A stretch of 51,238 nucleotides of DNA from Gallionella sp. (GTDB taxonomy: Bacteria > Pseudomonadota > Gammaproteobacteria > Burkholderiales > Gallionellaceae): assembly GCA_028714075.1 (NCBI GenBank), contig JAQTMZ010000012.1, positions 1 to 51,238 of the forward strand. Reading direction: 5' to 3'. Both the position numbers and the translations under genes were made by a program. Positions 537-13,431 of this stretch are shown here, piece after piece. Position 1 is the first letter of the stretch. Every line of letters starts with the position of its first letter. The notes under the pieces are model-generated. The model ran no database searches. It saw only the letters and a list, made by a program, of their open reading frames with translations, and had not been told where the DNA came from.

Positions 537-1007
537 CTATTTTATCAGTATGCTCTCGTTTTTCATCCAATAAAGATGAATGGCGAAAGCGTCATAGGGC
601 GTCAGCGGAATGTCAGCCAGTTCTTCAAAAGAAAATTCTTCCAATCTTTCGCCTTCATGTAACACCAAGCATGACAATTCTTTTTCCGTAGGCTCAACTA
701 AATAATACTCACGAAAATAATTGCCAAGCTCCATTGGGTGTAAGTCGAATTCAAGTCGACTCACAAATTTGTATTTCTCAAATGATAGTTCAAGTTCCTC
801 GAATAGCTCACGTCGTAAAGCTGTTAGCGGGGTTTCGCCTTTATCAAGCGCACCACCAAAGCAGCCCCACGATGCCGGATACCAAATATTCGGTTTGGCA
901 TCCCTGAGTTGCATCAGGAGCTTTCCTTCTGGGGTTTGAATGATGGCAGCTACGGCATCCGACATCGCTAAAGTAGGCAGTGGGCTGCCCCATACGGGTA
1001 GCCCCAA
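537..1007 (-). CDS. Nudix hydrolase
   Basis: 156-residue Nudix-fold protein. The Nudix box is visible as G-x5-E-x7-RELFEEL (GALDKGE...RRELFEEL, around residues 52-74). It supplies the metal-binding glutamates for hydrolysis of a nucleoside diphosphate linked to another moiety. The usual Gly after the EE pair is Glu here (EELEL). The chosen start is TTG at 1007, two bases after the aminotransferase stop, because GGAGG lies six bases upstream (1014-1018); the in-frame ATG at 965 has no such site. As last gene of the sugar operon it could hydrolyse an NDP-sugar or clean up a damaged nucleotide. The substrate cannot be read from the sequence. Confidence 0.85.
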   Translation of the reverse strand: MGLPVWGSPLPTLAMSDAVAAIIQTPEGKLLMQLRDAKPNIWYPASWGCFGGALDKGETPLTALRRELFEELELSFEKYKFVSRLEFDLHPMELGNYFREYYLVEPTEKELSCLVLHEGERLEEFSFEELADIPLTPYDAFAIHLYWMKNESILIK

Positions 1008-1008
1008 G

Positions 1009-2280
1009 CTATGCCTCCACCAAGTGGATAGTCCGGCTGGGCTTGGGATCCGAACTCATCGCCCGATGAATTTTGAGTAATGCGGCTGCCGTGTCAGCCG
1101 CCTCCTCAGTGCCATAGTTCTCATTAAGATAAAGGCAAAAGCTCCGGTTTCTAGCGTCCAGCGCCTGTGGGGTATTGAAGTTATCGGCGAGATGGGGGAG
1201 TACCCACTTCCATTCTGAAACCACATAAGCATAATGCGGGTTCAAATCAATGCCTTCAGCCTTTATTGCTTCTGCTATTTCTGTTTTGGTTCGCTTGGTT
1301 CGTGTCATGTCGACATAGATCGGGACAATGAATGGCGAGTCGCATGGAGTCCAATTATAAATATTGAACATCGTATTCATTTCGGCCATCAGCGCCGCCA
1401 GCTCGGACACAAAGGCGAGCCGTTTGACGATGGTATCGTTCAACCGTTTCAGGGATGCAATTCCGATGGCACATGACAATTCGTCCGTGTTCCAGTTCAG
1501 CGCCGGGAAAAGGTAGTTTGACGGATCGCGATCATTGAAATCGCTACGCCACCTTGGTTTACCCCTGTCTGCGTGCGCAAGAGCATTGCGATATAGATCA
1601 ATGTTGTTCGAATAAACAACACCGCCTGACCCACCGGTAATGTGAATTTTGCGATACATGGTAGAAAACGCTGCAATGTCACCGAACGTCCCAACGGGGC
1701 GCCCCATCCGTGTTGCACCATGGGCTTGGCTGCAATCTTCAATAACCGCAATGCCTCTATCGCGCGCGACATCCATAATAAGTTCTATCTCGGTCGCTTG
1801 CCCCGCCGAGTGGACAACAACGATGGCTGAAACCTCCGGTGTGAGGCGTTCTCGCACCTGACTGGCACCCATGTTGTAATCATTGGGTCTCGAATCAGCC
1901 AAGCGAGGGCGAAGACCATTTAAAATGATCGCAGAAATTGTTCCCGGGTCGGTGATCGGCGAAACAATGACTTCGCTTCCACGGGTCAAATCCAGCGCAG
2001 CAATAGCAATAAACACAGATGCTGTTCCTGTGGCAACAGCATCTGCATACCCGCCGCCCATGTGTGCAACAAAATCGTCCGTGTAGCGCTTTTCGTAGAT
2101 GCCCTGATATCCAGGGTCGACCTGCTCGGCACGATAGGCAGAGATCGCTTCTTCCAGCATTCCCACCTCAGCGTCACCCATTGCAATGCGACGGGGTAAG
2201 TGGCTCTGCCGAACTTTCGTCCCGCCTTCTAAAGCCAACTTCCAGTCTTTAATACGGGATTCTATTTCCGCCAGTTCCAT
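1009..2280 (-). CDS. DegT/DnrJ/EryC1/StrS-family PLP-dependent sugar aminotransferase
   Basis: 423 residues, fold type I aminotransferase. Recognisable parts are the cofactor phosphate-binding ATGTAS (83-88), the EDCSQAHGA segment (181-189) whose Asp contacts the PLP ring nitrogen, and the Schiff-base Lys (K211 in FSTMYRKIHITGG), followed by the Gly-rich GGSGG. The family transfers an amino group from Glu or Gln to a keto sugar nucleotide. The start codon overlaps the transketolase C-subunit stop by one base (TGATG), implying translational coupling. With a dehydrogenase-like gene (4832-6121) and a Gfo/Idh oxidoreductase upstream, the likely substrate is a ketone made on the NDP-sugar by one of them. 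The product identity is inference. Confidence 0.9.
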   Translation of the reverse strand: MELAEIESRIKDWKLALEGGTKVRQSHLPRRIAMGDAEVGMLEEAISAYRAEQVDPGYQGIYEKRYTDDFVAHMGGGYADAVATGTASVFIAIAALDLTRGSEVIVSPITDPGTISAIILNGLRPRLADSRPNDYNMGASQVRERLTPEVSAIVVVHSAGQATEIELIMDVARDRGIAVIEDCSQAHGATRMGRPVGTFGDIAAFSTMYRKIHITGGSGGVVYSNNIDLYRNALAHADRGKPRWRSDFNDRDPSNYLFPALNWNTDELSCAIGIASLKRLNDTIVKRLAFVSELAALMAEMNTMFNIYNWTPCDSPFIVPIYVDMTRTKRTKTEIAEAIKAEGIDLNPHYAYVVSEWKWVLPHLADNFNTPQALDARNRSFCLYLNENYGTEEAADTAAALLKIHRAMSSDPKPSRTIHLVEA

Positions 2281-3200
2281 CAGGGGTTACCGATTTTTGC
2301 CAGTATCAATTCGCGAGAAATACCATGCGATGCCAATAAATTTTCGTAGCTGCCGTAGTTGTGTATGAATTCATCCTTAAGCGTGAACGTATCAAGCCGA
2401 CAACGGGCTGCGGTATCCCAGGCAATTTGTTTTGTTTGTGGCGCCACACCGCCTTGCGGGGCATGTTCCTCGATAACGATTACATGCTTGTGAGTATGCA
2501 AAGCCCGCTCTATACCATCACGATCGAGTGGCTTTATCGTATGGCAAGAGACGAGTGATACCGATTTTCCGGTGGACTGAAGGTGGTCGGCGATTTCCTG
2601 TGCAAGTTTCATTATTACGCCATAAGATATGATGCATACGTCCTCGCCACGGCGCAGATAGCGAAGTTTGCCAAATACGAAAGGCTCTACGGCATTTTCG
2701 GTAAGGGTCGGCTCGCCGGCCTTCCCGATGCGAAGGTACATTGGGCCGTTATTTTCGGTTGCGCAGTATCTGGTGGCATCAGTACACTCCAGCGGATCAC
2801 AGGGTGCAAGTATTTGCATGTTTGGAATCGCGCCTGCCACCGCAATGTCCTCTTGCGTATGATGCGTGCCCCCCAAGGTGGAATAGATGATGCCCGCTCC
2901 CATGCCGACTACCGTCACGGGAAGATTTTGATAGCCGAGATCATTGCGAACCATCTCAAACGGGCGATAAAGCGAGAATGTCGCAATCGTGTAGGCAAAT
3001 GGGCGGCATCCTTTCAGCGCAAGGCCGGCAGCTATCCCGATCATTACTTGTTCGGCGACTCCTACGTTAATAAATCTCTCAGGATATTCTGTTTGAAATT
3101 TGGCCATCGACCCTGCTGGTGAAATGTCGGCAACCACAATGTATACGCGCGGATCTGCCTTGGCGCACTCGTAGAGCGTAGCGGAAAAAGTATTTCTCAT
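2280..3200 (-). CDS. Transketolase, C-terminal subunit (pyrimidine-binding and C-terminal domains)
   Basis: 306 residues, equal to the second half of a transketolase. It has the TPP pyrimidine-binding domain with the proton-relay Glu in FINVGVAEQVMIGIAAGLAL, the LGGTHHTQEDIA segment near the active site, and the C-terminal domain (LVSCHTIKPLD...VIVIEEH). It needs the N-terminal half encoded immediately upstream; the reading frames overlap by four bases (ATGA). Together they should move a two-carbon glycolaldehyde unit between sugar phosphates. The position inside a sugar-nucleotide operon suggests a dedicated role, either precursor supply or two-carbon chain extension, rather than central pentose metabolism. 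1-Deoxyxylulose synthase is unlikely because that enzyme is a single long chain. Confidence 0.9.
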   Translation of the reverse strand: MRNTFSATLYECAKADPRVYIVVADISPAGSMAKFQTEYPERFINVGVAEQVMIGIAAGLALKGCRPFAYTIATFSLYRPFEMVRNDLGYQNLPVTVVGMGAGIIYSTLGGTHHTQEDIAVAGAIPNMQILAPCDPLECTDATRYCATENNGPMYLRIGKAGEPTLTENAVEPFVFGKLRYLRRGEDVCIISYGVIMKLAQEIADHLQSTGKSVSLVSCHTIKPLDRDGIERALHTHKHVIVIEEHAPQGGVAPQTKQIAWDTAARCRLDTFTLKDEFIHNYGSYENLLASHGISRELILAKIGNP

Positions 3201-4018
3201 GTTTCGTTGGCTCCAATTTCGGCAAGTGCTTGGCGATATTCATCGGGATTGGGTGAGCGGTAATGCCATATAGGTACATTTTCCATGAAGCTGACACCCT
3301 TGCCTTTTGTGGTCTTGCAGATAACCATTAGCGGCCGGTCACCCTTGCGCGACTTTACAGCGGCATAAATCGCTTGCGTGTCGTGCCCATCAACTTCAAT
3401 CGCCTCCCACCCAAAAGAGAGGTACTTTTCGACCACAGGATAAAAACTCGGATGAGTGATGCTTGTGCGCCCAAGGCTCTGAAAATCGTTGTTGTCGACA
3501 AACGCTACCAAGTTATTGACCTTCAGTGAGGAGGCCATCAATGTTGCCTCCCAAGTAGAACCTTCCTGAAGTTCACCATCTGACACCACACAATAAACAG
3601 TGCTGTTTTTGCCTTGAGCCTTTTCGGCATAAGCCATTCCGAGCGCCATCGAGAGGCCATGCCCCAATGCACCAGTCGAAGCGGCAATACCAGGGTTCCC
3701 ATAATCAGGGTGGCAGCCCAGTCTGCCACCAGCTTTACAGTACATATCCATGTCTTGCCGGGAAAGTATGCCAATTTCTTCAAGAATTGCATACTGAATC
3801 ATGCATCCATGCCCCTTCGACATAAGGAAAGTGTCCAAAAATTGGCCATCGCCATCCTTGTGCATCAAGCAGTAATAAATGCAATCTACGATTTCGGTGC
3901 AGGAATAAGCGGATCCGATATGCAACGCTTGCACTTGTTGGGAAATTTCAAGAATGCGTTTGCGGAATTTCCTGCAGCGCTGCTTTGAAATTTCGGTATC
4001 AGTTTGAAAATGACTCAA
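3197..4018 (-). CDS. Transketolase, N-terminal TPP-binding subunit
   Basis: 273 residues carrying only the pyrophosphate-binding domain. Visible are KGHGCMIQYA, GALGHGLSMALGMAYA, and the TPP/metal motif SDGELQEGSTWEA...VDNN (SDG replaces the usual GDG). The start is TTG at 4018; AGGAG lies at 4026-4030, seven bases upstream, and no in-frame ATG nearby has comparable support. It overlaps the C-terminal subunit by four bases. Split transketolases of this type occur in secondary-metabolite and surface-polysaccharide loci as well as in some central pathways. Base composition here is visibly more AT-rich than in the housekeeping genes to the right, which fits acquisition by transfer. Confidence 0.9.
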   Translation of the reverse strand: MSHFQTDTEISKQRCRKFRKRILEISQQVQALHIGSAYSCTEIVDCIYYCLMHKDGDGQFLDTFLMSKGHGCMIQYAILEEIGILSRQDMDMYCKAGGRLGCHPDYGNPGIAASTGALGHGLSMALGMAYAEKAQGKNSTVYCVVSDGELQEGSTWEATLMASSLKVNNLVAFVDNNDFQSLGRTSITHPSFYPVVEKYLSFGWEAIEVDGHDTQAIYAAVKSRKGDRPLMVICKTTKGKGVSFMENVPIWHYRSPNPDEYRQALAEIGANET

Positions 4019-4051
4019 ATTAGCTCTCCTGGAGGTGGTTTTATATGCGTA

Positions 4052-4711
4052 CTACTCGACGATAGTCCAGAAATAGTCTCCGGTGTATCCTGCCTCACGG
4101 AACGTGTCGATCCAACCGCTGGGATAATTATGGTATTTTGCAGTCAGCACCCAGGTTTCGAATAATTCTTTTTGCTCTGGCGTGCGGTAGGAGTCGACCT
4201 GAACGAAGCCACGCCCGGGAGCGAGCCGCTCAATCTCTTGTAGTGCTTGCAATACCTGCGGGCGCTCGAGATTGTGAATGGTATTAATCGATATCACCGC
4301 ATCAAAGGACTTGTCAGGGAAAGGCAAGCTGTCCGCGCTTCCGAGGTGCAGCCTTCCTATAACTTCAGGCTCACAATGTTTCAAAGCATATTCTGATATA
4401 TCCAGGCCGAATACTTGAAGCCCGGGGCATGCCGACATTAAATCTTTTACCAGAAATCCTTTGCCACACCCGATGTCCAGCACGCGGTCCCCATGCTTGA
4501 GACCAAAGTGGGCGACGATGTCTTCGGCGATCGGCACCCAGCGTCCATCGTAGCGATAGCCTCCATAGCCATATTCTCGCGGTCCGTCAAAATATTCAAA
4601 CCCATATTCTCGAGATTTGGCAACAACTTCAGGCGTTTTTGCTGCGCCACGTGCAGCAACGTTTCGCTTGGGTTTCGGAAGTCTGGCTAATAGGTCAATT
4701 TCTTGTTGCAT
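4052..4711 (-). CDS. Class I SAM-dependent methyltransferase
   Basis: 219 residues. Motif I VLDIGCGKGFL (77-87) binds S-adenosylmethionine; the acidic residue ending strand 2 is in VFGLDISEYA, and SADSLPFPDKSFDAVISIN matches motifs II/III. The N-terminus is rich in Gly, Tyr and Arg (GPREYGYGGYRYDGRWVP, 43-60) and resembles a subgroup found beside transketolase-like genes in polysaccharide loci (from memory). A small-molecule or sugar methyltransferase is likely, with the NDP-sugar or a later glycan as acceptor. It sits between the split transketolase and the dehydrogenase paralogue, with 120 non-coding bases on its upstream side, so a separate promoter there is possible. The exact substrate is unknown. 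Confidence 0.85.
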   Translation of the reverse strand: MQQEIDLLARLPKPKRNVAARGAAKTPEVVAKSREYGFEYFDGPREYGYGGYRYDGRWVPIAEDIVAHFGLKHGDRVLDIGCGKGFLVKDLMSACPGLQVFGLDISEYALKHCEPEVIGRLHLGSADSLPFPDKSFDAVISINTIHNLERPQVLQALQEIERLAPGRGFVQVDSYRTPEQKELFETWVLTAKYHNYPSGWIDTFREAGYTGDYFWTIVE

Positions 4712-4831
4712 GGTTATAAATCCCCATATGTTTTTTAATTACATCACGGACACAAAAAAGTAGTCCCACACATTTTATTACCATTGTCGCAATATGAATT
4801 TATCGAAAATAAGTCCACAAACAAGAGCCGA

Positions 4832-6121
4832 TTATATCCAAGAAGCTTCGACTGCCGCTCGACCCAAGGTAACAACTCGCAGGCCCGCCGCACGCGCTGC
4901 TCTTTCATCCAATATTGAATAAGGGTCAACTACCAGATGCCCTTTCATTACCTTGGCAATTTCACCAGGAGCGACGTTACGGAATTCCGGCCATGGTGTA
5001 AGAACCATTAATGCATCGGCTCCGGTTGCTGCCTCAAGAGGATCAGCTGCTTCTAACGCTTGAGGATGCTGCGCCACGGAAGCCGACACAACTGGATCAT
5101 AAAGCCTTACGCTGATGTCCTGCAATTGAGACAAGGCGAGAAGGGAGGGCGAATTCTTGACGGAATGTGTATTCTCTTTATAAGCCAGCCCCCATACTGC
5201 GACAATTGCGTTCTTCGCACCGTTCGCCAATTCCGTTCGTATGGTTCGGGCAGGCCATCCCTTGCGGTGTTCGCTATTTACCAGCCACGCCCGAACAACT
5301 CCTGCATCAGTTCCATGTTTTTCGGCAAACCTGCAAACTGTAGCCAAATCTCTTTCAAGGTTGCCTCCAGAAATCCCTAAACCTGGCGCAAGATAAGAAT
5401 AGTTGCCAATTCGACGATCGAGCTTTAACGCCGGGACAATCTCGGACCAGTCGGCACCAATCTTTTCGCAGAGTTCGGCCAAAGTATTGGCTGTGCTGAC
5501 CGATGCAACCAGACACATGTTGATGGATATTTTCGCAAGCTCAGCACTTTCATAACGCATGGGTAGAATGGGGCAACCGTGCGCTTCAAGAAAGCATCGA
5601 TAGGCATCTGGAAGCGGTTCTGCCGGGTCTGCGCAGCCGATGATGTAGCGTTCTGGAAAAAGTGCCCGCTCCACGGCACGTCCAAATATGAGCGTCTCCA
5701 CCTGATAATAAAGCATGCGCCCCAGTTGCTGCTTGCCTCGTGTAAATCCAGGCGGAACCTGGGATAGAACGACAATTACGGCATCGCTGCGTGATGCCTG
5801 GAACACAATATCGAGCAACAGGTTGATTGGATTGAGATCGCTGCAGCCCTGATCGTCGGTCGGAACGTCGGGAGCCACGTAGATGACATCGCAATCCTTA
5901 AGCGCCGCTGCGTCGTGGGTAAAGCGCAGGCGCTCGGCGTTTTTCGCAACAAGTTCATCGAGTTGCGGTTCGGATACAGGCAGTTTTCCTTTTTGTAGAG
6001 CGGCTATACGCTGTACATCCGGATCGAAGCAAATAAGTGTAAATCCCTTTTCTGCTGCGGATACCCCGGACACCAAGCCAAGATGCGTCATACCCACGAA
6101 GCCAATTACTGGTTGCTTCAC
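4832..6121 (-). CDS. UDP-glucose/GDP-mannose dehydrogenase-family protein lacking the catalytic Cys
   Basis: 429 residues with the family's layout. The N-terminal Rossmann part starts GFVGMTHLGLVSGVSA, a central helix contains AELAKISINMCLVASVSTAN with the conserved Lys197 and Asn201, and a C-terminal domain contains VWGLAYKENTHSVKNSPS. The catalytic motif, normally G-F-G-G-S-C-F-P-K-D, reads G-I-S-G-G-N-L-E-R-D here, so Asn254 stands where the thioester-forming Cys should be. Without Cys the second oxidation (aldehyde to acid) should fail, so I infer a two-electron alcohol oxidation giving a ketone or aldehyde. That would suit the aminotransferase in the same operon, and LmbL of lincosamide clusters belongs to this family. 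It overlaps the next gene by one base. Confidence 0.85.
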   Translation of the reverse strand: MKQPVIGFVGMTHLGLVSGVSAAEKGFTLICFDPDVQRIAALQKGKLPVSEPQLDELVAKNAERLRFTHDAAALKDCDVIYVAPDVPTDDQGCSDLNPINLLLDIVFQASRSDAVIVVLSQVPPGFTRGKQQLGRMLYYQVETLIFGRAVERALFPERYIIGCADPAEPLPDAYRCFLEAHGCPILPMRYESAELAKISINMCLVASVSTANTLAELCEKIGADWSEIVPALKLDRRIGNYSYLAPGLGISGGNLERDLATVCRFAEKHGTDAGVVRAWLVNSEHRKGWPARTIRTELANGAKNAIVAVWGLAYKENTHSVKNSPSLLALSQLQDISVRLYDPVVSASVAQHPQALEAADPLEAATGADALMVLTPWPEFRNVAPGEIAKVMKGHLVVDPYSILDERAARAAGLRVVTLGRAAVEASWI

Positions 6122-7011
6122 TATTTATTCTCCTGCTGTTGGCATGCGCAAATGGCCGACATTCCTTCATGCCATGATTTGAATCGAAACCCCGGAAACG
6201 CGGCAAGCACGGCTGTGTTATCGAACGCGCGATAACCGTTATGAGGCATCGGGCCGGAGCGCGGTAAACTTTTGATTAAGACCTTCGGTGAAAATGCCGC
6301 TGCGGCAAATTGGGCTAGTTCACAAAACGATACGACCTTACCCGATACGGCATTGGCAATGCCTGTGCTGCGATGAAGAATAATCAGGCGCACGAGCTCG
6401 GCGACATCCTCTATATCGACGTGGTCGCGCTGTTCTTCTCCGTTGCCAAAAAGGACGATTTCCTTGCCTGCGGCAGCGAGGCGCCTGAAACGATTTGGAC
6501 CATAACCGTTATGCGGGTCGTCGTAGCCGTAGACGAGAGTTGGACGCACCAGTGCAAGTGGCCCGGAATACTCTTGTCTGAGTGCTACCTCGCGCGTCAG
6601 GTGCATAATCCCGTGCAGCGAGTTCGGTTCTGCGCAGGATGCCTCGGTAATCGGCTTGTCTGAGTCTTTGTAAACCGCATCCGAACTGATATAGACTACA
6701 TGTGCGACTGGTCGCTGTTGGAGTGCAGCGCATACAGCTTCCGCCATCAGCGTGTTCTCGGTCAGCATTTGCATATTTCGGCACGGTGCCTTGGCTGAAA
6801 CAAATACAAGTGTGTCTTCAGGGTTAAGCGCCTCGGCAAGCTGCCCTGCAGCATCTGGTTTAAGCAGGTCAAGAGACGGGCGGCCTAGGCCAATCGCCAA
6901 GATGCCGTCCGCATGCAACTTGCGGAGTATGGCGCCAGCGATGAAGCCGCTTCCGCCGAGAACGACAACCCGCTTTGGCTTTGCTTGCTGTAGTTGAAGA
7001 TGATTCAACAT
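6121..7011 (-). CDS. NAD-dependent epimerase/reductase (extended SDR)
   Basis: 296 residues. The N-terminal nucleotide-binding motif is VVLGGSGFIAGAIL, a variant of GGxGFIG. VVYISSDAVYKDSDKPI precedes the active-site region, and the protein continues with ALVRPTLVYG and a downstream NAVSGKVVSF segment as in RmlD/WcaG-like reductases and epimerases. The canonical YxxxK is not obvious; LHGIMHLTREVALR occupies its place, so the catalytic Tyr may be replaced. It overlaps the Gfo/Idh gene by seven bases and the dehydrogenase-like gene by one, so the three are probably translationally coupled. A role in reducing or epimerising the NDP-sugar is inferred. Confidence 0.8.
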   Translation of the reverse strand: MLNHLQLQQAKPKRVVVLGGSGFIAGAILRKLHADGILAIGLGRPSLDLLKPDAAGQLAEALNPEDTLVFVSAKAPCRNMQMLTENTLMAEAVCAALQQRPVAHVVYISSDAVYKDSDKPITEASCAEPNSLHGIMHLTREVALRQEYSGPLALVRPTLVYGYDDPHNGYGPNRFRRLAAAGKEIVLFGNGEEQRDHVDIEDVAELVRLIILHRSTGIANAVSGKVVSFCELAQFAAAAFSPKVLIKSLPRSGPMPHNGYRAFDNTAVLAAFPGFRFKSWHEGMSAICACQQQENK

Positions 7012-7940
7012 TGCTTGGCACCTTTACCTTGCTTGAGTTCTTCACCGAGACTTCGCAACGTGTCGTTGATCCAAATGTCGTTGTCTATGTTGCTTTCGCC
7101 CACCTCGCATAGCTTGCAGAAATGTTTGTATTCAATCGCCCAAGTGGGGTCTGGCTGCACCAGCGTTATTGATTCCTCGTCCGGTCGGCCACTGGGCAGT
7201 TTGCGGTCACGCACACTGAAGGTACTTGGCCCCCACTTGCACAGAGAATTGATGTGTGCACTTCCCTTTTCGGCGAATATGTCGGCATAGAAGTGGTTGC
7301 GCCATGAGAGTAGAGTGACCTCGAGCTGCAATACAATATTGGCATTGGCACCAAAAGCTACGTGGTCGAAAGCGCGATTTTCAAAGCAGCTGGCTGATTG
7401 GATGCTAAAACCTGAGACTGGTTTTCCCAGCCAGAACAGCGCGGTATCCAGAAGATGGGAGCCGAGATCAGGAAGCACCCCTGCGCCTTGGTCGCGCCAA
7501 GCAGAATCACGCACCAACCGCGCTGTACCGTTACCGTAGAACATGCGTATCGCATAGACCTTACCCAGCTGCCCAGATTGGATCATGTCCCTCATCCGGA
7601 CGAAATGCGGCTCGAAACGATGGTTGTAGGCAGTGTAGCAAACTACACGATTGTCGCGTGCGATTGCCTTCAACTCGATCAGATCTTCGGGGCGGTCAGC
7701 AAACAGCGGTTTTTCTACCAACAGGTGCTTGCCGTTGGAGAGCAGGTACTTGAGCAGGTCAATCTTGACTTCATCGGGTGTGCACAGAAGTGCCGCATCG
7801 TATGCGCTCAGCGGCACGTCCTCAAGGTGTTTATACGATGCCTCCGCATTGAACGGGTCGACTGTGGCAACGACATCTTTACCTGCTACTGCATTCCGCT
7901 TGTGGCCTTGTACGCCAAGGCCGACTACTACTGCACGCAT
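7005..7940 (-). CDS. Gfo/Idh/MocA-family oxidoreductase
   Basis: 311 residues. It has the N-terminal Rossmann motif VVGLGVQGHKRNA, the family's diagnostic EKPLF (KHLLVEKPLF, around residue 75), AYNHRFEPHF and a C-terminal alpha/beta substrate domain that includes DLGSHLLDTALFWLG. Members oxidise or reduce hydroxyls of sugars and NDP-sugars with a tightly held NAD(P). In amino-sugar pathways they often work just before a DegT aminotransferase, and LmbZ of lincosamide clusters belongs to this family. Sixteen bases separate it from the upstream nucleotidyltransferase-kinase. The substrate is inferred only from the operon. Confidence 0.88.
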   Translation of the reverse strand: MRAVVVGLGVQGHKRNAVAGKDVVATVDPFNAEASYKHLEDVPLSAYDAALLCTPDEVKIDLLKYLLSNGKHLLVEKPLFADRPEDLIELKAIARDNRVVCYTAYNHRFEPHFVRMRDMIQSGQLGKVYAIRMFYGNGTARLVRDSAWRDQGAGVLPDLGSHLLDTALFWLGKPVSGFSIQSASCFENRAFDHVAFGANANIVLQLEVTLLSWRNHFYADIFAEKGSAHINSLCKWGPSTFSVRDRKLPSGRPDEESITLVQPDPTWAIEYKHFCKLCEVGESNIDNDIWINDTLRSLGEELKQGKGAKQC

Positions 7941-7955
7941 CGTTAACCCCTGAAC

Positions 7956-9503
7956 TTATTTGTAGTGAACGAGTTTTTCGATCGATTCGATCTTATTCAG
8001 CACCATCTCGGGTGTGACTGGCCAATTGCCGTCATGCTCACATTCAATGCCGGCGGCCATATTGCCGAGAATCGAGGCGATTACATCATTTTTAGTGGCA
8101 ACTAGTGCAAGCGTTGCATAGGCAAGCAGTGCATCGCCTGCACCTACAGCGTCAACGATGCGGTCGGCAAATGTCTCGATATTGAAGAAAGCGTGATAAT
8201 CCGGCGACTTGGATCTGTAGGTGATGATGCCGCGTTCGCCGCATTTGAGAATCAGCGTGCCGCATTTCGAACGCTGGTATAGTTCCAGCGCAAGCGGTCG
8301 AACAACGGTGTCCTGATCGCCGAGCGCAAAACGTGCCTCACGTTCATTCGGTGTGATTAAATCGAAACCTTGAAATTCGAGAATATTACCCCAGCGGCTT
8401 GCTACTTGGCTGTCGGCCACGCGAAACACCCCTTCCGGAATTGCGGAGGTCAGGTGTGGGATGGTGTCGCGGTTGAATATACCGTGACGAAAGTCGCAGA
8501 AGGCAACGGCCTGCGTTTTTGTATCGGCAATTTGTTGTCTCAACTGCTCAACAATCTTGCTGGATATCGAACGGTTGTCCAGTGTATCAACCTTAAGCAT
8601 CCGATAGTTCTCGGCAACGATGGCGTTTTTGTTAGTGGTCGGGCGAGTTTCATCTATGATCGGCATACAGTGCACACCGGCAGTGCTGAGGTCATCAAGC
8701 ACAAAACTTTTATAGGCATCGTTACCGAGCACGGTTGAAAAAGTCACGTCAGCGCCGGCAGCGCGTAAATGCTTGGCTACCACACCGGCGCCACCGACAT
8801 AATCAACCTTTTTTTCAAAGCGCACACTCATGGTCGGGGTCTTGGTCATGCCACCGATCATGCTGCAGTAGGTGTAACTGTCGACGATGGTGTCTCCGAC
8901 TACGTGGGCGTGTATCCCTTTTAGCATGCTGACCGTATCACGCAGATCCTTGAAAGTGACTCCCTCAGCTTCCATCAGCGTCATCAGTTTTTCTATGAAG
9001 ATCGAGGGCGGTGCAAGTTCGATCAGCGCGGAGGATGAATAGACAATGTCGCCAGGCGTGAAGATCATCTCCCCGCCGTAACTTTCCAGAATGTCGATCT
9101 CTTCCTTTGTCTTGGGATGCACAGTGCCGGCGGTGTATTCATAGCCCTTGGCGAAAAAATCTGGCTGAATGATGGACAGGTTTGCAAGCGGGGTTGGATC
9201 GTGATCCACCACTACGTAATCCACCATCTCGAGTGCTGCCAAGTTCACCGCACGCAGATCTTGGGGCACATAGGGCCGCATGTTGCCTTTCATGATGTGC
9301 TCATCCGCAGTCAGGCTGGCAATAAGGATGTCGGCCTTTGTCTTGGCATAGAGCAAGTGGCGTACGTGACCCGGATGCACCACGTCGAACGTGCCGTGGC
9401 ACATGATGACCTTGTGCTTGCGCGGGCGCGGGCCGATTGCTTCGCGAATCTGAGCTGCGGTTTTGATCTTGTGTGAATAGAGAAGTTTGCTTGCAGCATC
9501 CAT
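7956..9503 (-). CDS. Bifunctional sugar-phosphate nucleotidyltransferase / PfkB-family sugar kinase
   Basis: 515 residues using ATG at 9503, two bases after the upstream stop, with AAGGA eight bases before it; a longer frame to 9575 would overlap the upstream gene. Residues about 30-165 form an HldE/RfaE2-like nucleotidyltransferase: CHGTFDVVHPGHVRHL with the HxGH motif (43-46), KGNMRP, ALEMVDYVV and FAKGYEY. Residues about 175-515 form a ribokinase/PfkB domain ending in DAVGAGD (451-457), whose last Asp is the catalytic base. Bacterial HldE has the opposite order, kinase first. Expected reactions are phosphorylation at C1 of a sugar phosphate and, after a phosphatase step, transfer of a nucleotide (CMP or AMP, unresolved). 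Confidence 0.88.
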   Translation of the reverse strand: MDAASKLLYSHKIKTAAQIREAIGPRPRKHKVIMCHGTFDVVHPGHVRHLLYAKTKADILIASLTADEHIMKGNMRPYVPQDLRAVNLAALEMVDYVVVDHDPTPLANLSIIQPDFFAKGYEYTAGTVHPKTKEEIDILESYGGEMIFTPGDIVYSSSALIELAPPSIFIEKLMTLMEAEGVTFKDLRDTVSMLKGIHAHVVGDTIVDSYTYCSMIGGMTKTPTMSVRFEKKVDYVGGAGVVAKHLRAAGADVTFSTVLGNDAYKSFVLDDLSTAGVHCMPIIDETRPTTNKNAIVAENYRMLKVDTLDNRSISSKIVEQLRQQIADTKTQAVAFCDFRHGIFNRDTIPHLTSAIPEGVFRVADSQVASRWGNILEFQGFDLITPNEREARFALGDQDTVVRPLALELYQRSKCGTLILKCGERGIITYRSKSPDYHAFFNIETFADRIVDAVGAGDALLAYATLALVATKNDVIASILGNMAAGIECEHDGNWPVTPEMVLNKIESIEKLVHYK

Positions 9504-9505
9504 AA

Positions 9506-10510
9506 TCAGAGTCCTTGCGGGGTCATAAATTCGAACCAGGTCTTGGTGGCTTTGGCAATCGAATCGGTATCCCATAACGGTGCATTGCGCCAGTAATCGA
9601 TGTTGGCGACAATTTTCGCAACGCCCTCTTCGAAGCTTACCTGCTGTTTCCAGTCGAGCTCGGTAGTGATGCGCGTGATATCAGCCCAAGTGCAGTCTGG
9701 CTCACCGGGGCGCTTGGGGATGTGTATCTTCTCGCCGCCCAGCAACTCAACAAGTCGATTGACCGACTGCGGATTACCTGCGCCGAGGTTATAGACGCGA
9801 CCTACACGGCTGGTTTCGGCAGTTGCCAGAAACGCTCGTGCGACATCTGTGACGTATAGGAAATCGCGCGCCTGCGAACCATCGCCGACCACGGTATAGG
9901 GCTTGCCCGCGAGCTTCTGGCGCAGAAATACGCCAAATACCGCGCCGTATGCGCCGGAGGTGCGTGAACGTGTTCCGTATGCATTAAAAATGCGGATCGA
10001 GTTCACCGGTAGTTTGTAAACTGAGTGCCAATGAAATGCCGCCTGCTCGCCCTGGTACTTCGATAACGCATATGGATACAACGGTTCAATTACGTGTTCT
10101 TCGGTCGTCGGGGTCTTCGCCAAACCGTAACACGAGGATGATGCAGCGTAGACGAACTTTTGAACACCGGCGTTGCGCGCGCACTCGAGCATATGCACGG
10201 TGCCCTGCACGTTTGCCGACATGTATTCCAAGGGGTGCTCGATTGACGGCACGATGTCGCCGATCCCGGCGAAGTGAATCACGTACTTCACGCCGCGAAA
10301 CAACGCATCGTCGGGTGCATAGCTGCGAATGTCACGCTGTTCGAGTGCGACATCCGGATTGCTGCGGTGATGAGCGAGATTTTCCTCACGTCCGCCGACC
10401 ATGTTATCGATGGCGCGCACCGCAAAGCCGCGCTCGACCAGCAAATCGACCATGTGGCTGCCGATAAAACCTGCACCACCAGTAACAACTGCAACAGGGC
10501 GGGGAATCAC
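9506..10510 (-). CDS. NDP-sugar epimerase/dehydratase (extended SDR, GalE-like)
   Basis: 334 residues. NAD-binding VTGGAGFIGSH (10-19), Ser-rich AASSSCYG and catalytic Tyr147-x3-Lys151 (YALSK) are all intact. The late RPGEPDCTWADITRIT segment is typical of UDP-glucose 4-epimerase-like NDP-sugar enzymes. An unusual C-terminal tail with IDYWRNAPLWD follows the catalytic domain. The enzyme probably epimerises or dehydrates the activated sugar made by the neighbouring nucleotidyltransferase. It overlaps the next upstream SDR gene by four bases (ATGA-type), so the two are translated as a pair, which suggests successive or partner steps. Confidence 0.88.
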   Translation of the reverse strand: MIPRPVAVVTGGAGFIGSHMVDLLVERGFAVRAIDNMVGGREENLAHHRSNPDVALEQRDIRSYAPDDALFRGVKYVIHFAGIGDIVPSIEHPLEYMSANVQGTVHMLECARNAGVQKFVYAASSSCYGLAKTPTTEEHVIEPLYPYALSKYQGEQAAFHWHSVYKLPVNSIRIFNAYGTRSRTSGAYGAVFGVFLRQKLAGKPYTVVGDGSQARDFLYVTDVARAFLATAETSRVGRVYNLGAGNPQSVNRLVELLGGEKIHIPKRPGEPDCTWADITRITTELDWKQQVSFEEGVAKIVANIDYWRNAPLWDTDSIAKATKTWFEFMTPQGL

Positions 10511-11502
10511 TTTGCGCCGATCGCCTTCATGGTGCGGACGTTGTAGTAGCTATTGTCGTCAAAGCTGTTGGGTAACTTGCCTTCACGGAAAGCCTTGCAC
10601 AGGTCGCGTACTGCGTCTTCGACGGAGTACTTCGGTTGGTAACCCAGAGTGCGTTTAATTTTGTCCGAGTTGATGTGGTATGAGCGTAGATCGTTGGATT
10701 CAGAGACTTCGATAGGTATGCCTTTTTTCTCCGGGAATTCCTCTTCCACTACTTTTTTTACCGTCTTTGCGATATCCAATATGCTCATGTTCTGGAAACC
10801 GACGTTGAATATCTGGTTTGCAATCTTTTCTTCTGGAGCCGTGAGCAGCAGCTTGCACATATCGGCATAATCCTTGACGTGAAGATTCGGGCGCAACTGG
10901 GATCCACCGAACACCATGATTTTGCCTTTGTTCACCGCGTGGTTGGTGAGAATGTTCACGGAGAGATCGAGGCGCTGGCGCGGCCCATACCCGCATACTG
11001 TAGCCGGGCGGAAAATAACACCAACAAAATTCTGGTCGGTGTGCTTAAGCAGCAGCGGTTCGCACATTCCCTTGTATTTGTTGTAGAGAGTAAGCGGCAC
11101 GAGAGGATGATCTTCGGTTACGTTCGGGGAGTCCGATACGCCATATACCGAACTCGATGATGCAAAGACAAAACGTTTTACACCAGCCTTCTTGGCTGCG
11201 ATAACCAATGGCTCAAAAGATTCAAGATTTACGGATGTAGAAAGCTTTTCGTCGAGTTCGAAGCTGGCATCGTTAGAAATACAAGCAAGATGGAGGAGAT
11301 ATTCTTGGCCAGCGCACGCCTCGGCAAACTTTTTGGTATCGCGGACATCACCCTGAATCATGCGCAGCTTGGCATTCTTTGGGAAATGTGGGTCATACCA
11401 CATCATGTCGAAAACGGTTACCTCCCAATCTTCGTCCAGCAACTGTGGCACCAGTACGCTACCACAGTATCCCGCCCCGCCAACGACCAATATCTTTTTC
11501 AA
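10507..11502 (-). CDS. NDP-sugar epimerase/dehydratase (extended SDR)
   Basis: 331 residues. VVGGAGYCGS (7-15) binds the dinucleotide, FASSSSVYG (113-121) and Tyr140-x3-Lys144 (YNKYK) form the active site, and RPATVCGYGPRQRLD follows, as in the NAD-dependent epimerase/dehydratase family. Gly-Tyr-Cys replaces the common Gly-Phe-Ile. It is the second of three SDR proteins in the operon, 45 bases downstream of the transaldolase. One of the three would correspond functionally to the epimerase (LmbM) of the lincosamide octose pathway, but I cannot say which from sequence alone. Confidence 0.87.
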   Translation of the reverse strand: MKKILVVGGAGYCGSVLVPQLLDEDWEVTVFDMMWYDPHFPKNAKLRMIQGDVRDTKKFAEACAGQEYLLHLACISNDASFELDEKLSTSVNLESFEPLVIAAKKAGVKRFVFASSSSVYGVSDSPNVTEDHPLVPLTLYNKYKGMCEPLLLKHTDQNFVGVIFRPATVCGYGPRQRLDLSVNILTNHAVNKGKIMVFGGSQLRPNLHVKDYADMCKLLLTAPEEKIANQIFNVGFQNMSILDIAKTVKKVVEEEFPEKKGIPIEVSESNDLRSYHINSDKIKRTLGYQPKYSVEDAVRDLCKAFREGKLPNSFDDNSYYNVRTMKAIGAK

Positions 11503-11547
11503 AACTGCGCTCCTCTGAATAAATTAACCAAAATTTGTTGTCGGCGA

Positions 11548-12273
11548 TCAGCTAACCTTGATGTCATAGCCAGCCGTTTGAGCATCCCTGTAGAACATCT
11601 CGACGGTTTCAAGCGAGTACTGATCGAGACATTTGCCCACGAGAGAAAGCTTCTTGAGAATGTCATTCGTCGCGGTAATTATGTGGCAACCGATGGCATC
11701 CGCCTGAAATATATTGAGCAATTCGCGAGGGCTTGCCCAAATAAGCTCAGCTTTTGGTTTGGCGCGCATGATTTCTACCGCTTCAGCCATTAAGGGCATT
11801 GGATCGCGGCCTGTATCGGCAATGCGCCCCGCAAACACCGAAATAATTGCCGGAACATTGGGGGCGAGACAGTCGGTGACACTTTGCACCTGATCCAAGG
11901 ACATCAACGCAGTGACATTAAGCACGACTCCCGCTTTTGACAGGCGTTCAATCAGCGGGCCGGCAAACTGCTTTCTGGTATTGGTGACGGGTATTTTGAC
12001 ATTGACATTTTTTCCCCACGAGGCAATTTCCAATGCTTGCTGCTCCATTTCATCGAACTCGTCGGCGAATACTTCAAACGAGATGGGTCGATCCGGTATT
12101 GCTTCGAGCACCTGATGGGCAAATGCCCTGTAATCTTGTATACCAGCTTTGCGCATCAGTGTCGGATTGGTGGTAAATCCCTTGATCATCGGATTTGCGT
12201 ACATTTCGCTCATCCCAGCAAGGTCGGCACCGTCGGCAAACAACTTTACTTTAAGATTTGTAGTCGCATTCAT
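11548..12273 (-). CDS. Transaldolase-family protein (short, TalC/Fsa-like)
   Basis: 241 residues, the compact type of transaldolase or fructose-6-phosphate aldolase. The motif GFTTNPTLM (32-40) and the Schiff-base Lys93 in VNVKIPVTNT are both present, as is the late ISVFAGRIADTG segment that positions substrate phosphate. Transaldolases move a three-carbon dihydroxyacetone unit between sugar phosphates. Its place between the SDR genes and the HAD phosphatase, with gaps of 45 and 21 bases, argues for a dedicated pathway step. In lincosamide synthesis LmbR, of this family, builds an octulose 8-phosphate from a C5 acceptor. Here the chain length is inference; a housekeeping transaldolase is the alternative. 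Confidence 0.88.
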   Translation of the reverse strand: MNATTNLKVKLFADGADLAGMSEMYANPMIKGFTTNPTLMRKAGIQDYRAFAHQVLEAIPDRPISFEVFADEFDEMEQQALEIASWGKNVNVKIPVTNTRKQFAGPLIERLSKAGVVLNVTALMSLDQVQSVTDCLAPNVPAIISVFAGRIADTGRDPMPLMAEAVEIMRAKPKAELIWASPRELLNIFQADAIGCHIITATNDILKKLSLVGKCLDQYSLETVEMFYRDAQTAGYDIKVS

Positions 12274-12294
12274 GAATTAAAATTTCCTTTGTTG

Positions 12295-12828
12295 TTAATT
12301 TTCCTGAAAAATAGACCTGCTTGCTTCTTCTAATGACCCAACCGTCGCATCCGGATTATCTGCACGCCGTTCTTTATAATTATAATCAATATAAAAAGTG
12401 TGGCAGCCTGCCGCCTTACCGGCAGCCACATCCCGCCATCGATCTCCCACCATGAAACTACGCTTTAGATCTATCTGCCATTCTCGAGCTGCTTCGAGCA
12501 GCATGCCCGGTTTGGGCTTGCGGCAATCACAGCAGTCCTCATCCGTGTGATAACACACCTTAATGTCATCACATAACCCCGTAGCGCGTAATTTATCATG
12601 CATCGCTTCGACCACTTCCCGGCATTGAACACCAGTGGCGACATCGGGCTGGTTCGTGACAACGATAACCAAAAAACCAGCCTTTCGTAATTTATGGATT
12701 GCACATTCCACTCCTGGAAGAATTTCAAATCGTTCCAATGTGGCTGGGGGGTATGGCTTCCCGTCACGCACTACTGCACGGTTAATAACGCCATCACGAT
12801 CAAGAAAAACCGCGCGTTTCACAATCAT
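12295..12828 (-). CDS. HAD-superfamily phosphatase, GmhB-like (sugar bisphosphate phosphatase)
   Basis: 177 residues. Motif I FLDRDGVIN contains the nucleophile Asp10 and acid/base Asp12. Motif II is VVTNQPDVA, and motifs III/IV are CRKPKPGML and MVGDRWRDV. A Cys/His cluster (CYHTDEDCCDC) matches the zinc loop of histidinol-phosphatase/GmhB enzymes. GmhB removes the C7 phosphate from heptose 1,7-bisphosphate; a homologous step (LmbK) removes the C8 phosphate in octose synthesis. It lies 21 bases downstream of the isomerase gene and 21 bases upstream of the transaldolase gene, so all three are surely cotranscribed. Confidence 0.9.
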   Translation of the reverse strand: MIVKRAVFLDRDGVINRAVVRDGKPYPPATLERFEILPGVECAIHKLRKAGFLVIVVTNQPDVATGVQCREVVEAMHDKLRATGLCDDIKVCYHTDEDCCDCRKPKPGMLLEAAREWQIDLKRSFMVGDRWRDVAAGKAAGCHTFYIDYNYKERRADNPDATVGSLEEASRSIFQEN

Positions 12829-12849
12829 GTCAGATGCAGCAGTGAACTC

Positions 12850-13431
12850 TTACCATTTTGTTGCGATTTGCTGCAAATCAGGGTGTGATACAAGACAATG
12901 CCAAACCACCGCATGAAATGCCTCGGTGTGCGGAGTAATCCTGGATTGTTCTACAGTAGGTATGACGACTACCGCATCGCCTACCTGTTTGGTATAGCCT
13001 CCATCGCGCCCCACTACACCAAACACCTTCATTCCACGTGACTTGGCTTCTTTTAACGCATATACAAGATTGGCGCTAACATTTTTTTCCACATTGCCAC
13101 CACCGACGGAAAACACAAATACTGCGTCATTTTCGTTGGCTTTACTGGTGCGCAGCCAAGCAGCAAAGACTGTATCCCATCCCTCATCATTGGTGCGCGC
13201 AGTCAATTCAGATACGTTATCAACAGGCGTGTATGCTTCGATACCGCAAAGTTTGCGAAAGTCGTTGACTGCGTGGCTGCAGTTTGCTGCGCTTCCGCCG
13301 ACGCCTAACAAAAACAGACGCCCCTCGCGCTGACGAAGTGCTACCAGTTCAGATGCCAGTTTTTCAATTGCATTAACATCGATTAGGCTTGCCACTTTAT
13401 TTACTTCTTCAAAATATTTCTTTGTGTGCAT
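12850..13431 (-). CDS. SIS-domain sugar-phosphate isomerase, GmhA-like
   Basis: 193 residues. The phosphosugar-binding SIS motif appears as LLGVGGSAANCSHAVNDFRK (around 41-60), then VFVFSVGGGNVEKNV and a C-terminal His-containing helix (TEAFHAVVWH), which is the GmhA/DiaA arrangement. GmhA converts sedoheptulose 7-phosphate to glycero-manno-heptose 7-phosphate, and LmbN of lincosamide synthesis isomerises an octulose phosphate. This is probably the ketose-to-aldose step after the transaldolase in the same operon. The 236 bases upstream hold no convincing gene and may contain the operon's own promoter. Confidence 0.9.
   Translation of the reverse strand: MHTKKYFEEVNKVASLIDVNAIEKLASELVALRQREGRLFLLGVGGSAANCSHAVNDFRKLCGIEAYTPVDNVSELTARTNDEGWDTVFAAWLRTSKANENDAVFVFSVGGGNVEKNVSANLVYALKEAKSRGMKVFGVVGRDGGYTKQVGDAVVVIPTVEQSRITPHTEAFHAVVWHCLVSHPDLQQIATKW

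What the first reader, a model, noticed from the sequence alone, without database searches (positions are those of the whole stretch)
1009..13431. Dedicated higher-carbon (C7/C8) amino-sugar nucleotide pathway resembling the lincosamide octose route
The operon codes for a transaldolase, a GmhA-like isomerase, a GmhB-like phosphatase, a kinase fused to a nucleotidyltransferase, SDR epimerases, a UGD-family dehydrogenase, a Gfo/Idh oxidoreductase and a DegT aminotransferase. Lincosamide clusters use the same classes to build GDP-octose: LmbR, LmbN, LmbP, LmbK, LmbO, LmbM, LmbL, LmbZ and LmbS. Finding this set in a betaproteobacterial surface-sugar island is unusual. Added parts here are a split transketolase and a methyltransferase. 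Uncertain points: the nucleotidyltransferase is HldE-like rather than a guanylyltransferase, and the chain length (C7 or C8) cannot be read from sequence.
Basis: partly seen in the sequence, partly recalled or inferred. Interest (0 to 1): 0.85.

Follow-up and report, generated by a model that had tools for sequence, protein, structure and literature searches.

The report
Lincomycin-type octose pathway for surface sugars
A 14-gene bacterial operon carries relatives of seven genes that build the eight-carbon sugar of the antibiotic lincomycin, next to genes shared with a cluster thought to make the ten-carbon sugar bradyrhizose, and is predicted to make a rare branched long-chain amino sugar, likely for the cell surface.

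Summary
In detail: 14 co-oriented, nearly abutting genes (window 537-13431, minus strand) encode the listed enzymes. The genome keeps a housekeeping ADP-heptose set elsewhere. Cassettes of this kind were fetched from 80 loci in ten phyla (all eight core genes in 42). The UGD-family enzyme forms a clade with LmbL-type enzymes (100/98) and has Asn where true UGDs have the catalytic Cys (LmbL-type: Thr). The SIS groups with LmbN (96/84); the HAD is closer to LmbK than to GmhB; the transaldolase joins LmbR at 90/82, not decisive. A same-genus genome has the same kind of transaldolase, SIS and HAD beside LmbM-, LmbZ-, LmbP- and LmbO-like genes. The fusion enzyme, SDR1, split transketolase and methyltransferase are shared with the 11-gene bradyrhizose cluster, located here by published primers. 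Split transketolase and PDH-E1 genes never co-occur in the 80 loci, which suggests C2 branching. Chain length, nucleotide and product remain unproven.

The parts
12850..13431 (-). SIS sugar-phosphate isomerase, LmbN-like; predicted octulose 8-phosphate isomerase
   Evidence: PF13580 39.5 bits; far below the GmhA cut-off (58 against 209 bits); clade with LmbN-type 96/84; Asp at the GmhA catalytic Glu position (role of that Glu recalled)
12295..12828 (-). HAD phosphatase, LmbK-like; predicted octose 1,8-bisphosphate 8-phosphatase
   Evidence: 42-49% identical to the HADs of the two clusters read as celesticetin and lincomycin; cassette profile scores LmbK-type 153-218 and GmhB 96-122 bits
11548..12273 (-). 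Transaldolase, LmbR-like; predicted to make octulose 8-phosphate
   Evidence: TIGR02134 over cut-off; only PF00923 match in the genome; Lys conserved in 67 of 67 cassette rows (Schiff-base role recalled)
10507..11502 (-). SDR1, predicted NDP-sugar C4-dehydrogenase (Cj1427-like)
   Evidence: best PDB sequence hit 6vo6, 115.9 bits against 78 for the next; 6vo6 is Cj1427 by its title; 43% to the SDR of the bradyrhizose cluster
9506..10510 (-). SDR2, predicted epimerase
   Evidence: 78 of 80 related loci; SSSCYG motif conserved (that dehydratases have TDE there is recalled); 24-30% to LmbM-type SDRs
7956..9503 (-). HldF: nucleotidyltransferase then PfkB kinase, one protein; predicted octose 1-kinase and NDP-octose synthase
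   Evidence: PF01467 + PF00294, both domains below the HldE cut-offs; 80 of 80 loci because it was the query; 30% to the bradyrhizose-cluster fusion
7005..7940 (-). Gfo/Idh oxidoreductase, LmbZ class
   Evidence: Pfam; 79 of 80 loci; 25-27% to LmbZ-type
6121..7011 (-). SDR3, RmlD-like, predicted ketoreductase
   Evidence: Pfam; 62 of 80 loci
4832..6121 (-). UGD-family dehydrogenase without the catalytic Cys; LmbL-like; predicted chain-ketone former
   Evidence: Asn in 78 of 80 cassette rows (2 gaps), Thr in 5 of 5 Lmb-type, Cys in 27 of 27 references; clade with LmbL-type 100/98
4052..4711 (-). SAM methyltransferase shared with the bradyrhizose cluster
   Evidence: 43% to the bradyrhizose-cluster MT; 53 of 80 loci
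3197..4018 (-). Split transketolase, N (ThDP) half
   Evidence: PF00456; 39% to the bradyrhizose-cluster half
2280..3200 (-). Split transketolase, C half; with the N half predicted to transfer a C2 unit to a keto sugar
   Evidence: PF02779+PF02780; never together with PDH-E1 genes in the 80 fetched loci
1009..2280 (-). DegT/DnrJ/EryC1 aminotransferase, predicted to aminate a ketone
   Evidence: PF01041; FSTMYRK motif conserved (catalytic role of the Lys recalled); close match in 12 of 80 loci
537..1007 (-). Nudix hydrolase, last complete gene of the operon in the window
   Evidence: PF00293; 14 of 80 loci

Best explanation
The operon carries relatives of seven lincosamide octose enzymes and most likely builds a nucleotide-linked eight-carbon sugar by that route, to which its split transketolase would then add a two-carbon branch and its aminotransferase an amino group. 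Predicted steps, all chemistry inferred: (1) the transaldolase moves a C3 unit from fructose 6-phosphate (or sedoheptulose 7-phosphate) to ribose 5-phosphate, giving octulose 8-phosphate; (2) the SIS isomerase makes octose 8-phosphate; (3) the PfkB domain of the fusion phosphorylates C1; (4) the HAD enzyme removes the 8-phosphate; (5) the nucleotidyltransferase domain makes NDP-octose (nucleotide unknown); (6) the Cys-less UGD-family enzyme with the Gfo enzyme takes the side chain to a ketone and cannot make a uronic acid; (7) SDR1 makes the ring C4 ketone; (8) the split transketolase adds a hydroxyacetyl group there, giving a C10 branched sugar; (9) SDR2/SDR3, DegT and the methyltransferase finish it. 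Shown here: the gene set, its conservation, the clades with LmbL- and LmbN-type enzymes, the residue changes, the sharing with the bradyrhizose cluster.
For: Window transaldolase as query: 5 of 392 genomes of a Streptomyces-like genus match, and all 5 loci hold HAD-UGD-SDR-SIS-Gfo-kinase-NTase-DegT-Tal in one order, that of the lmb table; carrier domain on the SIS of G1167 and on the Gfo of G978 (read by eye) as published for LmbN and CcbZ (PMC4351081). Clades: UGD+LmbL-type 100/98, joining it with TuaD-type UGD rejected p 0.004; SIS+LmbN-type 96/84; HAD not separated from LmbK-type, GmhB far off. Catalytic Cys lost in cassette and Lmb-type, kept in 27 of 27 references. SIS: Asp in cassette 53 of 54 (1 gap), LmbN-type 5/5, bradyrhizose 8/8, against Glu in 25 of 26 GmhA/DiaA. 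Same-genus locus L250 joins 59-69% identical Tal/SIS/HAD to LmbM- (39-42%), LmbZ- (34-37%), LmbP- and LmbO-like genes (27-34%). Housekeeping heptose genes elsewhere. Split transketolase in 29, PDH-E1 in 17, both in 0 of 80 loci, mostly in the same slot; such E1 pairs add C2 branches to keto sugars and split transketolases are proposed to (PMC12247030).
Against: Identities to Lmb-type proteins are 23-49%, so substrate identity does not follow. The specificity of the transaldolase query is partly because that genus lacks TalC-type enzymes: in the whole phylum 156 of 296 genomes match at E 0.001, nearly all listed at 25-37% identity. Transaldolase with LmbR is only 90/82, and LmbR-type with TalC is not quite rejected (p 0.057). 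SIS with the bradyrhizose SIS is not rejected (p 0.38), nor SIS with GmhA (p 0.10). By profile score LmbL-type enzymes are further from the cassette than true UGDs (105-163 against up to 233 bits); only the tree joins them. No LmbP or LmbO gene in the window; the HldE-type fusion points to a heptose ancestry for activation. Gfo, SDR2 and DegT likeness to Lmb was not tested against outgroups. The genome has no other transaldolase, so this one might also serve ordinary metabolism. 10 of the 41 full-flank loci have neither transketolase nor E1 genes. No glycan structure is known to me for any carrier found.
Confidence: 0.55

Rival explanations
1. The chain is C7: the transaldolase makes sedoheptulose 7-phosphate and the set makes an NDP-heptose that is then modified, like the Campylobacter capsule heptoses or, perhaps, bradyrhizose.
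For: The activation enzyme is HldE-type, SDR1 is nearest to Cj1427, which oxidises GDP-manno-heptose (PMC10680097, passages), the bradyrhizose cluster shares SIS, fusion, SDR1 and split transketolase without a transaldolase, and the genome has no other transaldolase.
Against: UGD-family and SIS group with the octose enzymes LmbL and LmbN, HAD is nearest LmbK; transaldolase, UGD and Gfo, none of them found in the eight bradyrhizose loci, are the extra parts of the lincosamide set.
Confidence: 0.27
2. The split transketolase is not a branching enzyme but feeds pentose/heptose/octulose phosphates to the operon.
For: Transketolases commonly do this; octulose 8-phosphate can be made by transketolases (PMC5854111, passages).
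Against: PDH-E1 genes, not known to make sugar phosphates, are present in 17 of 80 loci and never with it (29 loci); 44 of 66 loci with the transaldolase show no transketolase on the fetched stretch; it sits at the tailoring end beside DegT.
Confidence: 0.25
3. The likeness is coincidental: common sugar-enzyme superfamilies recruited separately.
For: SDR, DegT and Gfo proteins are ubiquitous; identities are low; the transaldolase hits TalC-type enzymes widely.
Against: Recurring order in loci of ten phyla, clades with Lmb-type enzymes, shared loss of the UGD Cys, and the same-genus locus L250 that carries both kinds of genes.
Confidence: 0.04

Closest known systems
Lincosamide octose pathway (LmbR, N, P, K, O, M, L, Z, S; Ccb homologues)
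   Same: Transaldolase, SIS, HAD, UGD-family enzyme without Cys, Gfo, SDR and DegT are homologous; UGD and SIS group with LmbL- and LmbN-type, HAD scores nearest LmbK-type.
   Different: Kinase and guanylyltransferase replaced by one HldE-type fusion; extra SDR1, SDR3, split transketolase, methyltransferase, Nudix; not an antibiotic cluster; Asn instead of Thr at the Cys site.
Bradyrhizose (C10) O-antigen cluster of photosynthetic Bradyrhizobium (11 genes, PMC4743980)
   Same: NTase-kinase fusion (30%), SDR1 (43%), SIS (33%), TkN/TkC (39/38%), MT (43%).
   Different: No transaldolase, UGD-family or Gfo match in the eight loci read; has gdh, Zn-ADH, APH-like and NTP_transferase genes.
Campylobacter jejuni capsular GDP-heptose pathways
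   Same: SDR1 is nearest to their C4-dehydrogenase Cj1427.
   Different: They start from sedoheptulose 7-phosphate; the abstract lists no transaldolase, UGD-family or transketolase step (PMC10680097, passages).
ADP-heptose pathway (GmhA, GmhB, HldE, HldD)
   Same: Same enzyme superfamilies for the first steps.
   Different: Cassette proteins miss the equivalog cut-offs, and the genome has separate genes that pass them.
Split-gene transketolases of miharamycin/amipurimycin (PMC12247030, section 9 read)
   Same: Split transketolase in a cluster with a keto-sugar-forming oxidoreductase.
   Different: The review counts 13 such sequences, all from streptomycetes and untested in vitro; here they lie mostly in Pseudomonadota and Nitrospirota cassettes.

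Membership tests
Lincosamide-type octose pathway | Transaldolase, SIS, HAD, UGD-family, Gfo, SDR and DegT homologues in one cluster | tested here: met
   Seven window proteins match all five lmb-type loci with E below 1e-9
Lincosamide-type octose pathway | UGD-family enzyme sister to LmbL and lacking the catalytic Cys | tested here: met
   100/98 clade (composition and long-branch warnings); Cys-site counts
Lincosamide-type octose pathway | SIS groups with LmbN, not GmhA | tested here: met
   96/84, though forcing cassette with GmhA is not rejected (p 0.10)
Lincosamide-type octose pathway | HAD groups with LmbK, not GmhB | tested here: met
   Not separated from LmbK-type in the tree, GmhB on a long branch (quick, three groups, 15 of 25 GmhB); profile 153-218 against 96-122 bits
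Lincosamide-type octose pathway | Transaldolase groups with LmbR | tested here: inconclusive
   90/82, not starred; cassette+TalC rejected p 0.010
Lincosamide-type octose pathway | GHMP kinase LmbP and guanylyltransferase LmbO | tested here: not met
   Absent from the window operon, replaced by the HldE-type fusion; GHMP and NTP_transferase genes are present in the same-genus locus L250. So the operon is not filed as a member, only as working like one
Lincosamide-type octose pathway | C8 product | not testable with these tools
   Needs enzymology or glycan analysis
ADP-heptose biosynthesis (Gmh/Hld) | Proteins pass the curated equivalog cut-offs | tested here: not met
   SIS 58/209, HAD 128/178, kinase 134/345, NTase 91/181 bits
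Bradyrhizose cluster | gdh, Zn-ADH, APH-like and NTP_transferase genes with the fusion, SDR1, SIS and split transketolase | tested here: not met
   Six of the eleven proteins match window proteins; gdh meets SDR2 only at 25%, and ADH, APH, NTP_transferase and the 204-residue protein have no match
UDP-glucose/UDP-ManNAc dehydrogenases (uronate formers) | Catalytic Cys in GGSCFPKD or its equivalent | tested here: not met
   Asn at that column
ThDP sugar-branching enzymes (split TK, alphaKADH2) | C2 transfer to a keto sugar | not testable with these tools
   Only genomic support: mutual exclusion and slot

The most novel reading that the evidence does not exclude
A widespread, undescribed class of bacterial surface sugar: a C10 branched amino sugar whose eight-carbon backbone is made by the lincomycin-type octose route and whose two-carbon branch is put on by a split transketolase (or, in sister cassettes, a PDH-E1 pair). 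The lincosamide octose genes would then be an antibiotic offshoot of an older surface-sugar pathway, and bradyrhizose a second branch of the same toolkit.
Probability: 0.4. Interest if true: 0.9.

Novelty: new variant of a known kind. Interest (0 to 1): 0.78.

Why it matters
Eight-carbon aldoses are known to me mainly from a few antibiotics (recalled). Cassettes of this kind in ten phyla would mean that octoses, and octoses with a branch, are an overlooked class of surface sugar, and they offer many enzymes for making lincosamide-like sugars. The link to the bradyrhizose cluster gives a gene-by-gene starting point for a sugar whose genes were called unknown in 2016 (PMC4743980), and the natural exchange of split transketolase and PDH-E1 supports an untested proposal about how split transketolases branch sugars.

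Tried and rejected
Rejected: plain duplicate of the ADP-heptose pathway (cut-offs missed, housekeeping set elsewhere). Rejected: uronic-acid-forming UGD. Rejected: membership in the bradyrhizose cluster itself. Led nowhere: plasmid collection with the fusion protein, no match; papers on octoses in lipopolysaccharide, one listed, on E. coli surface polysaccharide genes, not read; profile scores for the transaldolase (LmbR-type 70-124, TalC-type 95-111 bits) and the UGD do not join cassette and Lmb, only the trees did; three-group trees of UGD and Tal cannot decide sisterhood and were replaced; the fold comparison of SDR1 gives tied Z for Cj1427 and many epimerases, so only the sequence score separates it. 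Not done: tests with outgroups for Gfo, SDR2, DegT, MT and the fusion; a second structure prediction.

Rows dropped: trees used 11-15 cassette members besides the window out of 54-80; three GmhA rows (L194, L195, L197) were left out of the careful SIS tree; weakly scoring references were left out and large transaldolases shorter than 281 residues out; Lmb-type proteins were cut to their last 205 (SIS), 440 (UGD) or 225 (Tal) residues because of upstream ORF extensions or the carrier fusion; 15 of 25 GmhB and 3 of 8 bradyrhizose SIS were used. The tree program warned of long branches and odd composition in Lmb rows. Group names of references (TuaD-type, WecC, Ugd, TalC) are mine, by motif and length. 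The scan kept the best 80 of 228 relatives, so its counts describe those only. The hypergeometric value ignores kinship and cut contigs.

Full report
THE GENES. On the minus strand from 13431 to 537 lie 14 genes with gaps or overlaps of -7 to 45 bases, except one gap of 120 (UGD to methyltransferase): SIS, HAD, transaldolase, SDR1, SDR2, a nucleotidyltransferase-PfkB fusion (here HldF), Gfo/Idh, SDR3, a UGD-family enzyme, a methyltransferase, the two halves of a transketolase, DegT and Nudix. The fusion probably starts at 9503, near where its relatives start. The window is the start of contig C12 of a 2.83-Mb genome. Twenty proteins of the rest of the window were scanned and none is a sugar-glycan enzyme. 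At 2-301 the first 100 residues of another NDP-sugar dehydrogenase are cut by the contig end (117 bits).

A DEDICATED SET. The same genome has hldA and hldD together (L002), hldC and gmhA together (L003) and gmhB (L242), each over the curated cut-off of at least one equivalog model. The cassette SIS, HAD, kinase and nucleotidyltransferase miss those cut-offs. The cassette transaldolase is the only PF00923 match of the genome; 9 of the 31 genomes of that search (8 of 18 same-genus ones) have none.

A WIDESPREAD CASSETTE. HldF was found in 5 of 299 genomes of the phylum, the window's own included (E 1e-80 or better). A scan of named genomes found 228 relatives, of which the best 80 were fetched. 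The order SIS-HAD-Tal-SDR1-SDR2-HldF-Gfo-UGD-SDR3-MT recurs, with gaps and swaps. Counts over all 80, many on short contigs: HldF 80 (the query), Gfo 79, SDR2 78, UGD 76, SDR1 74, Tal 66, SDR3 62, HAD 61, SIS 53, MT 53, TkN and TkC 29, Nudix 14, DegT 12; all eight of SIS, HAD, Tal, SDR1, SDR2, HldF, Gfo, UGD in 42. In the 41 with full flanks: HldF, Gfo, UGD and SDR2 41, SDR1 39, Tal 35, HAD 34, SIS 30. By record title they come from ten phyla: 59 Pseudomonadota (45 Alpha-, 10 Betaproteobacteria), 7 Nitrospirota and others. Twenty proteins of four loci, mostly flanking ones, were scanned: L025 has an O-antigen ligase/polymerase-type (Wzy_C) and two glycosyltransferase proteins; L014 (ABC transporter), L041 (MBOAT) and L083 (UDP-galactopyranose mutase) show no glycosyltransferase. 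So a surface destination is likely, not shown.

THE LINCOSAMIDE TEST. No Lmb sequence was at hand by name. The window transaldolase was first run against 296 genomes of the phylum of an actinobacterial locus: 156 match at E 0.001, nearly all listed ones at 25-37% identity, i.e. TalC-type. Five match. All five loci hold HAD, UGD-family, SDR, SIS, Gfo, GHMP kinase, nucleotidyltransferase, DegT and transaldolase in one order, that of the published lmb table. In G1167 (10.3 Mb) the SIS has an N-terminal carrier domain and in G978 the Gfo has a C-terminal one (read by eye); these are the published marks of LmbN and CcbZ (PMC4351081, passages), so I take them as the lincomycin and celesticetin clusters; the names come from this inference, not from a record. 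The other three are of a related type. That LmbR makes octulose phosphate from fructose or sedoheptulose phosphate and ribose 5-phosphate is from PMC5854111 (passages); that LmbN is an octulose 8-phosphate isomerase and LmbK, LmbO act in the same early steps is from PMC4351081; that LmbM, LmbL, CcbZ and CcbS turn GDP-octose into GDP-lincosamide is from PMC12945683 (passages).

TREES AND RESIDUES. UGD family: 12 cassette and 5 Lmb-type rows form a clade (100/98) against TuaD-type UGD 9, Ugd 5 and WecC 4; forcing cassette with TuaD-type is rejected, p 0.004. The catalytic Cys is Asn in 78 of 80 cassette rows (2 gaps), Thr in 5 of 5 Lmb-type and Cys in 27 of 27 references (pairwise view). Without it the enzyme should stop at a ketone, which fits a secondary alcohol in a longer chain (inference). 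SIS: 14 cassette and 5 LmbN-type rows, 96/84, against 24 GmhA/DiaA and 3 bradyrhizose rows; cassette with bradyrhizose (p 0.38) and cassette with GmhA (p 0.10) are not rejected. At the place of the GmhA catalytic Glu (identity of that residue recalled) stand Asp in 53 of 54 cassette rows (1 gap), 5 of 5 LmbN-type and 8 of 8 bradyrhizose rows, and Glu in 25 of 26 GmhA/DiaA, one Asp. HAD: in a quick tree 15 cassette and 5 LmbK-type rows are not separated from each other and 15 GmhB lie on a long branch, 100; three groups cannot show sisterhood, but the cassette profile also scores LmbK-type 153-218 and GmhB 96-122 bits. Transaldolase: cassette with LmbR-type 90/82, not starred; cassette with TalC rejected p 0.010; LmbR-type with TalC p 0.057.

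A BRIDGING LOCUS. In one of the 18 same-genus genomes searched (G1250, L250) a transaldolase, SIS and HAD 69, 62 and 59% identical to the window's stand beside a GHMP kinase and an NTP transferase (27-34% to the five lmb-type loci), a Gfo (34-37% to LmbZ-type, 29% to the window Gfo) and an SDR (39-42% to LmbM-type), then a methyltransferase and a GT2 protein. This is close to the lincosamide set inside the window's own genus. The contig ends at the transaldolase and no UGD-family match was seen on it, so whether one lies beyond is open. No outgroup test was made for these four.

THE BRADYRHIZOSE HALF. Bradyrhizose is a ten-carbon bicyclic sugar (PMC9912281, passages). PMC4743980 (sections 15 and 19 read, passages of the rest) reports that its genes were unknown and that disrupting gdh, in a conserved cluster of eleven genes, abolishes the O-antigen; the authors assume the cluster makes bradyrhizose and do not exclude polar effects; the text does not list the eleven. 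The published gdh primer matched 13 of 265 genomes of the genus of a Bradyrhizobium locus with up to 3 mismatches; eight of the 13 loci were read. L105 holds both primer sites exactly, about 380 bases apart. The eleven genes there, as I bound them: an NTase-PfkB fusion, an NTP_transferase, SDR1 (43% to the window), SIS (33%), gdh, TkN (39%), TkC (38%), Zn-ADH, a 204-residue protein without Pfam match (HAD-like by eye), APH-like, MT (43%). Eight of eight loci show the same window homologues and no transaldolase, UGD-family or Gfo match. Bradyrhizobium genomes also carry the window-type cassette (L083, L091).

BRANCHING. SDR1 is nearest by sequence to Cj1427 (6vo6; 115.9 bits, next 78; title), which oxidises C4 of GDP-manno-heptose (PMC10680097, passages). 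Among the 80 loci 29 have the split transketolase, 17 a PDH-E1 alpha gene (16 of them with the beta gene), none both kinds (naive probability 1.5e-4). In the 41 full-flank loci 20 have the transketolase, 11 the E1 pair, 10 neither. Of 29 transketolases 27, and of 17 E1 genes 13, lie 3-7.5 kb past HldF, two of the 13 on the other strand; the rest lie on the other side. E1 pairs of this kind add C2 branches at ring ketones and the branch may be transaminated; split transketolases are proposed, untested, to add hydroxyacetyl, with 13 sequences counted, all from streptomycetes (PMC12247030, section 9 read, passages of the rest). So I read the window transketolase as the branching enzyme and DegT as acting on a chain or branch ketone. 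This is inference.

VERDICT. It is not filed as a member, because LmbP and LmbO are replaced. I put about 0.65 on a C8 chain and 0.55 on the whole scheme. Ten literature searches in open-licence PMC papers listed none that, by title and abstract start, describes lincosamide-type octose genes in surface-sugar clusters; most listed papers were not opened and subscription papers were not searchable.

Noticed in passing
window 2-301 (-): First 100 residues of a second NDP-sugar dehydrogenase (117 bits to TIGR03026) cut by the contig end; the polysaccharide locus probably continues beyond the contig.
   Followed up: no
L105 3894-13995 and L106-L112: Gene content of the 11-gene bradyrhizose cluster, found by published primers: it includes a split transketolase, an SIS with Asp at the GmhA Glu site, a Cj1427-like SDR and a reversed HldE-like fusion.
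   Followed up: partly
L005 370-1470, L007 328-1428: In two other genera a radical SAM/SPASM gene lies just upstream of HldF, a different cassette variant (L005 scanned).
   Followed up: partly
L014 15653-17667 and 16 more of the 80 loci: PDH-E1 genes (alpha in 17, beta in 16) in loci without the split transketolase, mostly in its slot.
   Followed up: partly
30 of the 80 loci, e.g. L041 15416-16402: A GDP-mannose-4,6-dehydratase-like SDR (TSE motif by eye), 36% to the bradyrhizose gdh, often between MT and transketolase, not in the window operon.
   Followed up: partly
L041, L043, L049, L086: Record titles look doubtful: three MAG records titled Bordetella parapertussis, and 'Frankia sp. RB7' whose cassette has the layout and identities of the Bradyrhizobium ones and whose genome G300 is listed in the genus of G299.
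   Followed up: no
G000 and its genus: The window genome has no transaldolase but the cassette's; 8 of 18 same-genus genomes have none at all.
   Followed up: no
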